Source: Thermocrinis sp.
GTDB lineage: Bacteria; Aquificota; Aquificia; Aquificales; Aquificaceae
Length of the DNA: 64,000 bases
Direction of reading: 5' to 3'
Assembly: GCA_028276475.1 (NCBI GenBank)
Contig: JAPYWH010000001.1
Location: 1-64,000 of the forward strand
Below the pieces are notes generated by a model, which worked only from the letters and a program-made list of their open reading frames with translations, made no database searches and had not been told where the DNA came from. Position numbers and translations under genes: made by a program. Positions 5,954 to 19,814 of this stretch are shown here, in pieces (the stretch's first letter is position 1; every line of letters starts with the position of its first letter).

Positions 5954-5968
5954 AGAATAAATTATAAA

Positions 5969-6040
5969 TGGGCGATGGAGGAGTCGAACCTCCGACCTCC
6001 ATCGTGTGAGGATGGCGCTCTACCACTGAGCTAATCGCCC
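5969..6040 (-). tRNA. tRNA-Val (anticodon CAC)
   Basis: Reverse complement GGGCGATTAGCTCAGTGGTAGAGCGCCATCCTCACACGATGGAGGTCGGAGGTTCGACTCCTCCATCGCCCA folds as cloverleaf; loop CTCACAC. Confidence 0.93.
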
Positions 6041-6043
6041 ATC

Positions 6044-6117
6044 CGTCCCCGGGAGGAGTCGAACCTCCGGCCTCGAGATTAGGAATCTCGCGCTCTATCC
6101 TCCTGAGCTACGGGGAC
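6044..6117 (-). tRNA. tRNA-Arg (anticodon CCT)
   Basis: Reverse complement GTCCCCGTAGCTCAGGAGGATAGAGCGCGAGATTCCTAATCTCGAGGCCGGAGGTTCGACTCCTCCCGGGGACG; loop TTCCTAA. Confidence 0.93.
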
Positions 6118-6128
6118 TAACTATTCAA

Positions 6129-6614
6129 TTATAACACGTCTTTGGCTCCTTTGCAGGGCTTGGGTAGGGTGTTATTTAAACCTTCTATTATCCTTTTTTC
6201 CTCTTGACTTAATTTATGCCCTCTTAACCAATACAGAAATTCCACATATTCTCGCTCCGTCAGGCATTTATCAAGCCTTTTCTTGTTTTCTTCAAACATC
6301 TTTTTGGCAATGTCGTTAATCGGCTCAAGTCTAAAGCTCTATGGGTCGTCGTAATAATAAACAACAAAAAAGGGTATATTGCTGTTGTCAGCCAAAATAG
6401 AAATCGCCTCATAACTTCTGGGATGGGCGTTATCTTTGCTACCCGTAAATCTTTTGTAATCAATGAGTGCCACAGGCTTTCCGTAGTAATATTCCACCAT
6501 CAAAAAGTCTATATCCACTGCTGGACAATGGAAACCCCACTCCCTGTGGCGTTTGCTCAGTTCTAAATCCCTCCACTCTGTCCTTTCTTTTCTTACCTTT
6601 GATGGGTCAAACAT
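6129..6614 (-). pseudogene. Putative PD-(D/E)xK-like restriction endonuclease interrupted by in-frame TAG (6339-6341)
   Basis: VDIDFLMVEYYYGKPVALIDYKRF nuclease-like core; frame continues after TAG as SFRLEPINDIAKKMFEENKKRLDKCLTEREYVEFLYWLRGHKLSQEEKRIIEGLNNTLPKPCKGAKDVL*. Confidence 0.6.
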
Positions 6615-6669
6615 GTCCCTTTAGAATAAAATCTAATCCAAGGGCTTGGCACCTTTTCTTTGTGGTTAA

Positions 6670-7401
6670 TCAAGACTCCAAATCGTTGTCAATACCTATA
6701 AAATTGCAACCTCTTTTCAAAGCTACCACTGCGGTAGTTCCTCCTCCTACAAAAGGGTCTAAGATGGTCTGTCCTGGGAAAACGAACTTATCAAACAGCA
6801 GTTCAAAACCTTCTTCTGACTGCCCCCACCTGTGAAAACGTTTATCGTTGTTGTTAGGAGAGGTTTTAACCACATCTCCAAAAGAATCGCCCGAGTATTT
6901 GCCTTTGCTGAACAAAAGCACAGGCTTCCAGAAGGAATTGCACCTTATCCTCCACAGATAGGGACTTTGCCCTCCCGGAGTTAGATAAGCCAGCGTCCAA
7001 ACATAGTTAAGCTTACTGGAAAGCTTGCCAATTATATCCGGCAGATAGCTTTGCCCTACCATCACAAGCAATCCCCCTCCGGGCTTCAAAACGTATGCAG
7101 ACAGTTCACCCAAAACTTCATAAACCCACAAAAATTTTTTGGAGTAAGGTGGGTCCGTGATAACCCAATCCACGCTTTCAGGCAAAAGGATATCCTTATA
7201 GTCCCTCACATCCTTATGATGGAGTTCTAAAAAGGGTGGTTGAGGTGGTCTTTGGGACTTTAACCACTCCCTAAGCCTTCTTCTTTCTGACTTGGACAGC
7301 AACCTTCCTTTTTCCATAAAAAAGTCAAAGTAAGAACCCTTATAGGCAAGCAGTTCATCCCTAAAAAGCTCTGGGTCGTGTTTGAGCACCTTCCCCTTCA
7401 T
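6670..7401 (-). CDS. Site-specific DNA methyltransferase (beta-class order, DPPY then FxGxG)
   Basis: WVITDPPYSKKF; ILDPFVGGGTTAVVALKRGCNFIGIDND; apparent premature TGA at 6670-6672, frame continues to 6607. Confidence 0.88.
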   Translation of the reverse strand: MKGKVLKHDPELFRDELLAYKGSYFDFFMEKGRLLSKSERRRLREWLKSQRPPQPPFLELHHKDVRDYKDILLPESVDWVITDPPYSKKFLWVYEVLGELSAYVLKPGGGLLVMVGQSYLPDIIGKLSSKLNYVWTLAYLTPGGQSPYLWRIRCNSFWKPVLLFSKGKYSGDSFGDVVKTSPNNNDKRFHRWGQSEEGFELLFDKFVFPGQTILDPFVGGGTTAVVALKRGCNFIGIDNDLES

Positions 7402-10827: not shown

Positions 10828-10865
10828 AGCAAAAGTATTTTAAGGGCATAAATTTTGAAAAGGAT

Positions 10866-16745: not shown

Positions 16746-16787
16746 GGAAAATATAATAAGCCAAGATGCTTGGATTTTCTATTTATG

Positions 16788-19700
16788 TTATGTATGCAAA
16801 ACCCTTTTAAAAAACTTCTCAGCCCAATCCCCATCCTCTAAAAACAGTATGTTTTTCTTCTCGTATTCCTCTTGGGATTTAGATTTCTTGCTTACTTGAC
16901 CTTTTTGCAATTCTTGGTGAGGAGTGGTAGAGAGAACAAAACCCTTTACCTCCACTTGCCAGTTTTCGTATTGCTTTCTAAGGGTTTCCCTCAATCCCTC
17001 CGAAAGGAAAATAATCTTTTCATTATCAAGCACATCTCCCAGCATCTTTAGTCCCTTTGGTTCTATGAAAACTATGTAAATTCTGTTTCCATTCTTTTCT
17101 CTTATCCAAAGGATAAAGTCAGGATAAAACTCTCCCCAGTCAAGCATAAAGCCCACCCCTTCCCTTGCCTCGTTCCTGAGTAAAACTATGTGGTATTCAT
17201 CCAAAGGTTTTCGGTTTTGGGCTAAATAATCCCTCAGACCTTCCAAAAACCTCTTCTCTCCCTCGTTCAACCCCGGTGGAGAAATGCTTATACCTTCCTT
17301 TTCCAAAAGCAACGGAACAAAGACAGAATTATCTATAACAATCCTTGGCAATATATCCCTTTCCTTATGTTCATCCAAAAGGTCATCCATATTTTCAACA
17401 AGTCTTTTCAACTTTTCAATCAATTTTGATTTATCCGCAGGTACGGTCAGTGTATAGTATTCCACCTTATCGGAAGCCAGTCTAAACAGGCTTAATTGCT
17501 CTCTTGCAGGCTTGTAAGTTATAATGTCCTTTTCAAACCTACCCTTCTCCCTCTTGTAAAACTTGTCTATGTAGCTTTTCAGAAGGGAAATGGCTATGTT
17601 TTCCAAATTCTTCAAATCTTTCAAGTCCTTTACTTTAAAATCGTTTGGCACAATAACTTTGCACCTTTGTTTGAGGATTTCCTTTAAAGTCTCCAAATCA
17701 AAGCTAAGGTTTAAGTAGCGGATCTCCCTTTTGAACTCCAAAAGCTCTGTATAGATCCTCGTCCAATCAAAAAGCTCTATATCCACAAGGTCTGCGATGC
17801 TTTTTGACGCAATCTGAGTTTCAACTTCAGAAGATTGGACATCTTCCCTTTGCTCCTGTGCCATGTAAACCGCCATGCTTGGCACCAAGTTTATAGAAGC
17901 GGAATTATCATCCACTCTTAAGTGTAAAACCCTCTCCCTTTCAAATTTTTTGCTTTCATCTTTGGTAGGATAAGGAAAGTCCTTCCAAATCTCTCTGTTT
18001 AACACACGCACAGGCACTTTTATTTCTTCAAACTCTACCTCTTCTTTCTTTATGGCGGACAAAAACTTACCTATGTAGTCTGCGGATATGCCGTATATGT
18101 TTAAAGTTTCAAGGGTTGAGATTTCAGGATTGCCAGACCTTTTGAGGGAAAGGTTTTTGCCCTTTAGCCTTACGCCCCTTCCAAAAAGCTGGATGATCTG
18201 CGGACCTTCGCCCTTTCCGATGTTCAAAAGTCCCATACAGGAGACCCTCCAAGTGTCCCATCCCTCTATGAACTTTTTGGAACCTATGAGTATGTTAATG
18301 GTGGAGTTTTCCCTTTTTATGCTATCGAAGAGAGAATCACTTATTGCGTCCTGCTCTATTTCAAAGTCCTTCTCTTTCAGTAGTTTTTTAAAGGCAGACA
18401 CATCACCAATATTTACCACGCCAAAGTATGCGTTTTCTCCAAGCCTTAGCCCAAACTCTCCCTCCGCCCTCTTTATCTCAAGAATCCTCAGCTTCCCCCT
18501 ACCGTTGAAAACTTTTTCGTAAAGGTCCTCCAAATCAAAGCCCCTTCTTAACCTTTCAAACTTATGCCTAAAAATATCCTCTCCCTTTTCGTTTTTAAAC
18601 TCTCCGTTTAGGATTTTGTCAATCCTCTCCTTCAGCCAATCCCTGTTTAAGCTATTTCTTATAAGGTCTAAAACCTTTACTATGTCTGAGTCTATGTTTT
18701 TGCCCGAGACGGTGGAACCTACGAATATCCAAAGTGGTTTTTCTATGTTATACTCTCTGGCAATCCCTCTTTTTTCTTCATAAACCAAAAGTTGTTGGTA
18801 AAAGTCCAAAAGGTTTGCACAAAAAGCCATTTCTGTAAAGTCATCAATCTTTGAGTTTTTGATGTTTAGCACCCAAAAGTCCTTTCCATAGCCATCAAGG
18901 TAAAAGTATTTGTAAGAGTAATCAAAGATTATAGCCTTTGCGTATTCCTTTAGGATGTCCTCCTTGTCTAATATCTGCCCAAAGGTGGCACTATATTCAA
19001 AGGCAAAACCCTTTTCAATAAGCTTGTCCCTAAGCTTTGCCCACTTCTTCTCTTCAGACCTTTTGCCCTTATGCCCCTCATCCACAAAGATGAGATTTTT
19101 CCCCTCAAAGGCTGAAATGTGTATAGACCTTCCCCTTCCCCTTGTGTTTTCCGCTAACTTTGTGATCTCTATTATCAAAACTTCGTGTTCCCTTTGTCCG
19201 CTTGAACTCCCGCTTTCGCTGTAAAGCCTGCATGGAATACCGCTTTTTTGCATTTCCTCGTAATGCTGTTTGGAAAGCCCCTCGTTGGGAGTGATTAACA
19301 AAATGTTATCCGGTTCAAAGGGTTTATACCTCAAAAACTGCAAATAGTTTATGTGCATTATGAGGGTTTTGCCAGACCCCGTTGCCATCCAAAAGGCAAG
19401 CTTTTTAAGGTCTTCTTCCGAAAATTTACCTACGGTTTCTCTTACCTTTTTCTCTAAACTATTAACAAATCTGTTTAAATCCGCCAAAAACTCCTTCTTT
19501 TGGTTTGTTAACCTATCTAAGAATATCTCCGTGAATAAAACCGCCAAGTATTGGAAGTCTTTAAGTTCTATCTTTTCCTGTCTGCCTTGGTTTATTTTCC
19601 CTAGGTATTCCTGTATGTTTTGGTCGTATCTTTTTAGCTCATCCTTTGGAAGTCTTACTCCCTCCTTTGTCATAAGATTTATGGCAAAGTTCGTTAGACC

Positions 19701-19814
19701 ATCCCTTTCGCCCTCTTCCACACTTTTTAGATATCTCAAAAGCCCTCTGTTATCCTCTTCACCAAAAAGCCCTAAAAAATACTTGTTTAAGACCAAATAC
19801 TTTTCAATTTTCAT
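16788..19814 (-). CDS. Type III restriction endonuclease Res-like subunit
   Basis: Walker A KLAFWMATGSGKTLIMH; LIFVDEGHKGKRS; IQLFGRGVRLKG; C-terminal PD-ExK-like FYPDFILWI...YIVFIEPKG. Confidence 0.88.
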   Translation of the reverse strand: MKIEKYLVLNKYFLGLFGEEDNRGLLRYLKSVEEGERDGLTNFAINLMTKEGVRLPKDELKRYDQNIQEYLGKINQGRQEKIELKDFQYLAVLFTEIFLDRLTNQKKEFLADLNRFVNSLEKKVRETVGKFSEEDLKKLAFWMATGSGKTLIMHINYLQFLRYKPFEPDNILLITPNEGLSKQHYEEMQKSGIPCRLYSESGSSSGQREHEVLIIEITKLAENTRGRGRSIHISAFEGKNLIFVDEGHKGKRSEEKKWAKLRDKLIEKGFAFEYSATFGQILDKEDILKEYAKAIIFDYSYKYFYLDGYGKDFWVLNIKNSKIDDFTEMAFCANLLDFYQQLLVYEEKRGIAREYNIEKPLWIFVGSTVSGKNIDSDIVKVLDLIRNSLNRDWLKERIDKILNGEFKNEKGEDIFRHKFERLRRGFDLEDLYEKVFNGRGKLRILEIKRAEGEFGLRLGENAYFGVVNIGDVSAFKKLLKEKDFEIEQDAISDSLFDSIKRENSTINILIGSKKFIEGWDTWRVSCMGLLNIGKGEGPQIIQLFGRGVRLKGKNLSLKRSGNPEISTLETLNIYGISADYIGKFLSAIKKEEVEFEEIKVPVRVLNREIWKDFPYPTKDESKKFERERVLHLRVDDNSASINLVPSMAVYMAQEQREDVQSSEVETQIASKSIADLVDIELFDWTRIYTELLEFKREIRYLNLSFDLETLKEILKQRCKVIVPNDFKVKDLKDLKNLENIAISLLKSYIDKFYKREKGRFEKDIITYKPAREQLSLFRLASDKVEYYTLTVPADKSKLIEKLKRLVENMDDLLDEHKERDILPRIVIDNSVFVPLLLEKEGISISPPGLNEGEKRFLEGLRDYLAQNRKPLDEYHIVLLRNEAREGVGFMLDWGEFYPDFILWIREKNGNRIYIVFIEPKGLKMLGDVLDNEKIIFLSEGLRETLRKQYENWQVEVKGFVLSTTPHQELQKGQVSKKSKSQEEYEKKNILFLEDGDWAEKFFKRVLHT

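What the first reader, a model, noticed from the sequence alone, without database searches (positions are those of the whole stretch)
6129..6614. Putative restriction nuclease gene split by a single in-frame TAG, with the reading frame preserved for 70 codons after it
The 91-aa ORF has a PD-(D/E)xK-like core (VDIDFLMVEYYYGKPVALIDYKRF) and ends ...YYYDDP*. Beyond TAG 6341-6339 the frame is open and protein-like (SFRLEPINDIAKKMFEENKKRLDKCLTEREYVEFLYWLRGHKLSQEEK...) up to TAA 6129. With the TGA in the adjacent methyltransferase, both members of the pair carry exactly one nonsense change and no frameshift. That could be recent decay of a restriction-modification system, or stop-codon readthrough. 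The pair sits 3' of the pdxJ operon and next to two tRNAs.
Basis: partly seen in the sequence, partly recalled or inferred. Interest (0 to 1): 0.7.

Follow-up and report, generated by a model that had tools for sequence, protein, structure and literature searches.

The report
Recently broken restriction-modification-like gene pair
Two neighbouring genes of a bacterium, a DNA methyltransferase and a small probable DNA-cutting enzyme, each carry one stop codon that related bacteria lack, so the pair looks like a DNA-defence system caught early in being lost, which is an ordinary fate for such systems.

Summary
The frame 6614-6129(-) is open for 162 codons except for a TAG at 6341-6339. A same-genus complete genome (G003) has the same two genes at the same place, both uninterrupted: codon 92 is Trp (TGG), and the methyltransferase runs 264 codons through the window's TGA. 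The part after the TAG is a conserved part of the family: all 15 homologues examined continue 40 or more residues past that point. In 51 ORFs compared with G003, only these two are interrupted internally, so poor sequence quality is unlikely. Readthrough is not supported: no tRNA with a stop-reading anticodon, both release factors present, sense codons in relatives. dN/dS is low (0.10-0.14), and one stop per gene fits decay over roughly the last third of the branch. Sister species lack the whole pair at this site. Best reading: recent inactivation of a dispensable methyltransferase + small PD-(D/E)xK-like nuclease pair. The nuclease family has no Pfam, NCBIfam or PADLOC model, only an unnamed PHROG, but it sits directly behind the same type of methyltransferase in ten loci. 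Raw reads could not be checked, and nuclease function is inferred.

The parts
6129..6614 (-). Interrupted nuclease-like gene (162 codons including the final TAA, one in-frame TAG at codon 92)
   Evidence: intact orthologues G003 (91%) and G023 (57-58%); 15 homologues run past codon 91
6339..6341 (-). In-frame TAG; TGG (Trp) in G003 and G023
6450..6515 (-). PD-(D/E)xK-like core, codons 34-55: D34-I-D36-F ... E41-Y42 ... D52-Y53-K54 on two adjacent strands
   Evidence: Sequence; conservation in A4; strands 38-43 and 46-55 in the AlphaFold2 model of the G003 protein
6670..7401 (-). Methyltransferase gene as it stands: 243 codons then TGA; N6_N4_Mtase with DPPY and FVGGG motifs
   Evidence: PF01555, E 4.7e-14
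6670..6672 (-). In-frame TGA of the methyltransferase, inside a four-codon patch that differs from G003
6607..6669 (-). Former C-terminal 20 codons of the methyltransferase plus its old stop, overlapping the nuclease ATG by 8 nt
   Evidence: all 9 aligned methyltransferase homologues continue past this point
6129..7401 (-). Whole island between pdxJ and tRNA-Arg; absent from G001, G002, G005 and G006 at the same site
5968..6117 (-). tRNA-Arg (CCT) and tRNA-Val (CAC) next to the island; neither reads stop codons

Best explanation
This is a two-gene unit, a beta-class-type DNA methyltransferase followed with overlap by a small PD-(D/E)xK-like nuclease, lying between pdxJ and tRNA-Arg. It most likely worked as a compact restriction-modification system: the methyltransferase marks own DNA and the nuclease cuts unmarked DNA (function inferred). 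In the window's lineage both genes have recently been truncated by one stop codon each. The nuclease loses a core strand and its helical C-terminus and is most likely dead. The methyltransferase loses 20 C-terminal residues but keeps both catalytic motifs, so residual methylation is possible. Shown: the stops, intact orthologues, conservation beyond the stops, no suppressor tRNA found, and absence of the pair in sister species. Inferred: the enzymatic activities, that the nuclease failed first, and that the stops are true in the population.
For: Intact orthologues of both genes at the same site in G003. All 15 nuclease homologues extend at least 40 aa beyond the stop column, with conserved N100, A103, E120, L127 and R131 there. 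All 9 methyltransferase homologues extend past the TGA. Only these two of 51 compared ORFs are interrupted internally; the third hit differs only 14 codons before its end. dN/dS is 0.14 (nuclease) and 0.10-0.14 (methyltransferase); about a third of the branch could be unconstrained, in which 0.7 stops per gene are expected and 1 each is seen. No suppressor tRNA; both release factors present. The pair is dispensable: absent from G001, G002, G005 and G006 at this site and present in only 3 of 61 genomes of the relatives set. A distant relative, G111, has an intact methyltransferase and a frameshifted nuclease.
Against: The nuclease has not been shown to cut DNA, and no family model names it. The pre- versus post-stop difference in dN/dS (0.08 versus 0.24) is not significant (Fisher p 0.19). 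The timing estimate is crude. G000 is a 68-contig assembly with no reads available. The TGA patch is a cluster of seven differences, not a single substitution.
Confidence: 0.82

Rival explanations
1. Stop-codon readthrough or recoding: TAG and TGA are decoded at low level and the full proteins are made.
For: Both frames remain open and conserved after the stop; there are no frameshifts.
Against: No tRNA with a CTA, TCA or TTA anticodon among the G000 tRNAs; prfA and a prfB-type gene are present; G003 and G023 have sense codons, so there is no conserved readthrough; two different stop codons would both need decoding; no other ORF among 51 is interrupted internally.
Confidence: 0.03
2. Assembly or sequencing error, or strain mixture in the assembly, created one or both stops.
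For: G000 is a 68-contig assembly; reads were not available.
Against: No internal stops in the other 49 ORFs compared with G003; two errors falling in this adjacent dispensable pair by chance has odds of 1 in 1275 for two random ORFs of 51; the TGA patch differs at 7 bases, unlike a one-base error.
Confidence: 0.07
3. The truncated products are functional as they are: the 91-aa protein keeps the D...D...DxK core and the 243-aa methyltransferase keeps both motifs.
For: Motifs precede both stops; dN/dS of the pre-stop part of the nuclease is 0.08.
Against: No homologue is that short; in the model codon 92 begins a core strand (92-98) followed by conserved helices; invariant residues N100, A103, E120, L127 and R131 lie after the stop.
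Confidence: 0.08
4. The pair was never a restriction system: the small protein is a phage-type accessory protein that travels with methyltransferases and does not cut DNA. (This concerns function; it is compatible with decay by the stops.)
For: Streptomyces phage homologues lack the D and K of the core; three viral homologues have Arg for Lys, and for one of these (L015) the neighbouring ORF is a primase-polymerase; no significant PDB fold match.
Against: In the cellular and methyltransferase-linked copies the D-x-D ... E ... (D/E)-x-K set is kept, and many of the top weak fold matches are nucleases, including RecU, Hjc, Cas4 and cap-snatching endonucleases.
Confidence: 0.2

Closest known systems
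Type II restriction-modification systems with an N6_N4 methyltransferase (PF01555; PADLOC MTase_II models)
   Same: A methyltransferase gene (PF01555; PADLOC MTase_II best E 2.2e-14) is followed with overlap by a small nuclease-like gene
   Different: The nuclease has no model in Pfam, NCBIfam or PADLOC; cleavage, target site and protection are untested
phrog_16357 (Streptomyces phage proteins of unknown function)
   Same: Sequence homology over residues 8-135 (E 1e-21; tblastn 29-35% identity); one copy lies beside a cytosine methyltransferase
   Different: The phage proteins are about twice as long and have lost the D and K residues of the core
Degraded restriction-modification loci, e.g. 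Mycoplasma agalactiae hsdR and Type III methyltransferase pseudogenes (PMC9465063)
   Same: Genes truncated by premature stops in some strains and intact in others
   Different: There the causes are mainly length changes and frameshifts; here they are in-frame stops in both partners

Membership tests
Type II restriction-modification system | DNA methyltransferase gene | tested here: met
   PF01555 E 2.4e-14 for the intact G003 protein; DPPY and FVGGG present
Type II restriction-modification system | Partner nuclease gene adjacent | tested here: inconclusive
   A conserved nuclease-like partner is adjacent and overlapping in G003, G023, L006, L007, L009, L010, L012, L014, L018 and G111; that it is a nuclease is inferred
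Type II restriction-modification system | Cleavage of a specific site, blocked by the partner methylation | not testable with these tools
   Needs purified proteins or methylome data
PD-(D/E)xK nuclease superfamily | Acidic residues and (D/E)xK on neighbouring core strands | tested here: met
   D34 and D36 invariant and (D/E)52-Y-K54 in 10 of 13 cellular and IMG/VR homologues, R in the other 3; strands 38-43 and 46-55
PD-(D/E)xK nuclease superfamily | Core fold matching solved members | tested here: inconclusive
   Model pLDDT 79.6; best PDB E 0.024, none below 0.001; many top hits are nucleases of this superfamily
Pseudogene by nonsense mutation | Intact orthologue with a sense codon, and conserved sequence beyond the stop | tested here: met
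Stop-codon readthrough gene | Decoding tRNA, or the same stop conserved in relatives | tested here: not met

The most novel reading that the evidence does not exclude
The overlapping methyltransferase + small nuclease pair is an undescribed compact class of restriction-modification system, shared by thermophilic and other bacteria and by uncultivated viruses, in which the nuclease half is lost repeatedly (window, G111) and some phage copies have lost the catalytic residues.
Probability: 0.35. Interest if true: 0.4.

Novelty: new member of a known kind. Interest (0 to 1): 0.22.

Why it matters
It is a clean snapshot of a restriction-modification-like island with three states at one chromosomal site within one genus: intact, freshly interrupted in both genes, and absent. 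It also points to a nuclease-like family without any curated name that travels with one type of methyltransferase. The stops themselves are ordinary decay and do not point to recoding.

Tried and rejected
Suppressor tRNA search: 43 Rfam matches, 42 with ARAGORN anticodons, none reading a stop; the remaining weak match (C30:64983-65057, 29.2 bits) is not called by ARAGORN. Widespread sequence error: not seen in 51 ORFs. Source of the TGA patch by copying from elsewhere in the window: matches no more frequent than chance. Promoter and terminator scan: nothing above chance. Plasmid collection: no homologue. PDB sequence search for the nuclease: no significant hit. Literature: one paper on degraded R-M genes, nothing on this pair.

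Full report
Observation. The minus-strand frame 6614-6129 reads 91 codons, TAG at 6341-6339, 69 more codons and TAA. The adjacent methyltransferase ORF 7401-6670 ends in TGA; reading on, the frame stays open 20 more codons to a TGA that overlaps the nuclease start.

Relatives. A search of 60 relatives plus the own genome found the nuclease in only two others: G003 (same genus, one-contig genome, 91% identity, no stop) and G023 (same family, 58%, no stop). The methyltransferase has the same distribution, again uninterrupted in G003 (264 aa) and G023. Codon 92 is TGG in both. The TGA lies in a four-codon patch differing at 7 of 12 bases from G003, so the exact mutation there cannot be named.

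Is the region after the stop part of the family? Homologues were collected from genome contigs (3), viral contigs (10) and phage records (14, all Streptomyces phages). In an alignment with 15 homologues besides the G003 and window rows counted together as one family set (the fragment L018 left out), none ends at codon 91; the shortest continues 40 residues further. Residues conserved after the stop include N100, A103, E120, L127 and R131. The AlphaFold2 model of the G003 protein (mean pLDDT 79.6) has core strands 38-43, 46-55, 82-89 and 92-98, so the TAG falls at the first residue of a strand. All nine methyltransferase homologues also continue past the TGA into a C-terminal segment.

Background. 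Most of the window (about 57 kb) aligns to G003 at 92-94%. Of 51 G003 ORFs with an orthologue in the window, three hold a stop: these two, and a 1023-aa helicase-like ORF whose stop in the window lies about 14 codons before the end. Internal interruption is therefore confined to this pair. If two of 51 ORFs were hit at random, this pair would be chosen 1 time in 1275.

Readthrough. 43 tRNA matches were found; 42 have ARAGORN anticodons, and no CTA, TCA or TTA anticodon is among them. prfA scores above its cut-off, and the second hit is an intact 370-aa ORF taken to be prfB. Relatives have sense codons. Readthrough is not supported.

Timing. dN/dS between window and G003 is 0.14 for the nuclease (0.08 before and 0.24 after the stop, not significantly different, p 0.19) and 0.10-0.14 for the methyltransferase, against 0.04-0.09 for four of five neighbours. 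From the synonymous counts, a crude estimate is that about a third of the window branch could be unconstrained, in which 0.7 stops per gene are expected; one in each is seen. This fits recent loss of constraint. It does not date it.

The island. In G001, G005 and G006, pdxJ is followed directly by tRNA-Arg, with 3-7 bases between the matched ends; G002 also lacks the pair. A tree of the flanks places the window genome outside G003+G001+G005+G006, with the outgroup G002 on its side of a branch supported at 0.997. Pair and flanks are similarly diverged between window and G003 (nuclease 92%, methyltransferase 94%, flanks 93%). The simplest reading is an island already present in their common ancestor and later deleted in some sisters; repeated transfer to the same site is not excluded.

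What the pair is. The methyltransferase is PF01555. The nuclease hits no Pfam, NCBIfam or PADLOC model, only phrog_16357 of unknown function. A methyltransferase of the same kind lies directly upstream and overlapping in G003, G023, L006, L007, L009, L010, L012, L014, L018 and G111. D34 and D36 are invariant, and (D/E)52-Y-K54 is kept in 10 of 13 cellular and IMG/VR homologues. The top but non-significant PDB fold matches include RecU, Hjc, Cas4 and cap-snatching endonucleases. A restriction-modification-like function is therefore likely but inferred. Streptomyces phage copies lack the D and K residues, so not all members need cut DNA.

A second broken copy. In G111 (same order, other family) the methyltransferase is intact while the nuclease is split by a frameshift after codon 63. 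That assembly has about 230 contigs and its reads were not seen. If true, the nuclease half has been lost at least twice.

Verdict. Real observation, ordinary explanation: recent decay of a dispensable methyltransferase-nuclease pair. The moderately interesting residue is the unnamed nuclease-like family that travels with this methyltransferase.

Noticed in passing
L099 (G111:C125), 1307-2494: Distant relative with an intact methyltransferase and a nuclease split by a frameshift after codon 63
   Followed up: partly
window 16782-19814 (-): Restriction-helicase-like ORF of about 1008 aa, whose stop lies about 14 codons earlier than in G003 (1023 aa)
   Followed up: partly
window about 10835-10847: Synteny with G003 breaks here: 1421-10847 matches G003 near 1.34 Mb, 10835-61075 matches near 0.18-0.23 Mb
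   Followed up: no
L004 5010-5936 and L005 4986-5930: Streptomyces phage homologues of the nuclease that have lost the D and K of the core; in Geonosis next to a cytosine methyltransferase
   Followed up: partly
L100 (G074:C124): Distant nuclease homologue between ORFs that look like a Type III-like methyltransferase and a restriction helicase (by eye only)
   Followed up: no
window 6118-6140 (-): The TATAAT-like element just upstream of tRNA-Arg overlaps the stop codon of the nuclease gene; in the empty-site genomes a similar element lies at the end of pdxJ
   Followed up: no
L009 2599-3996: Viral-contig methyltransferase partner with an N-terminal ParB-type domain
   Followed up: no
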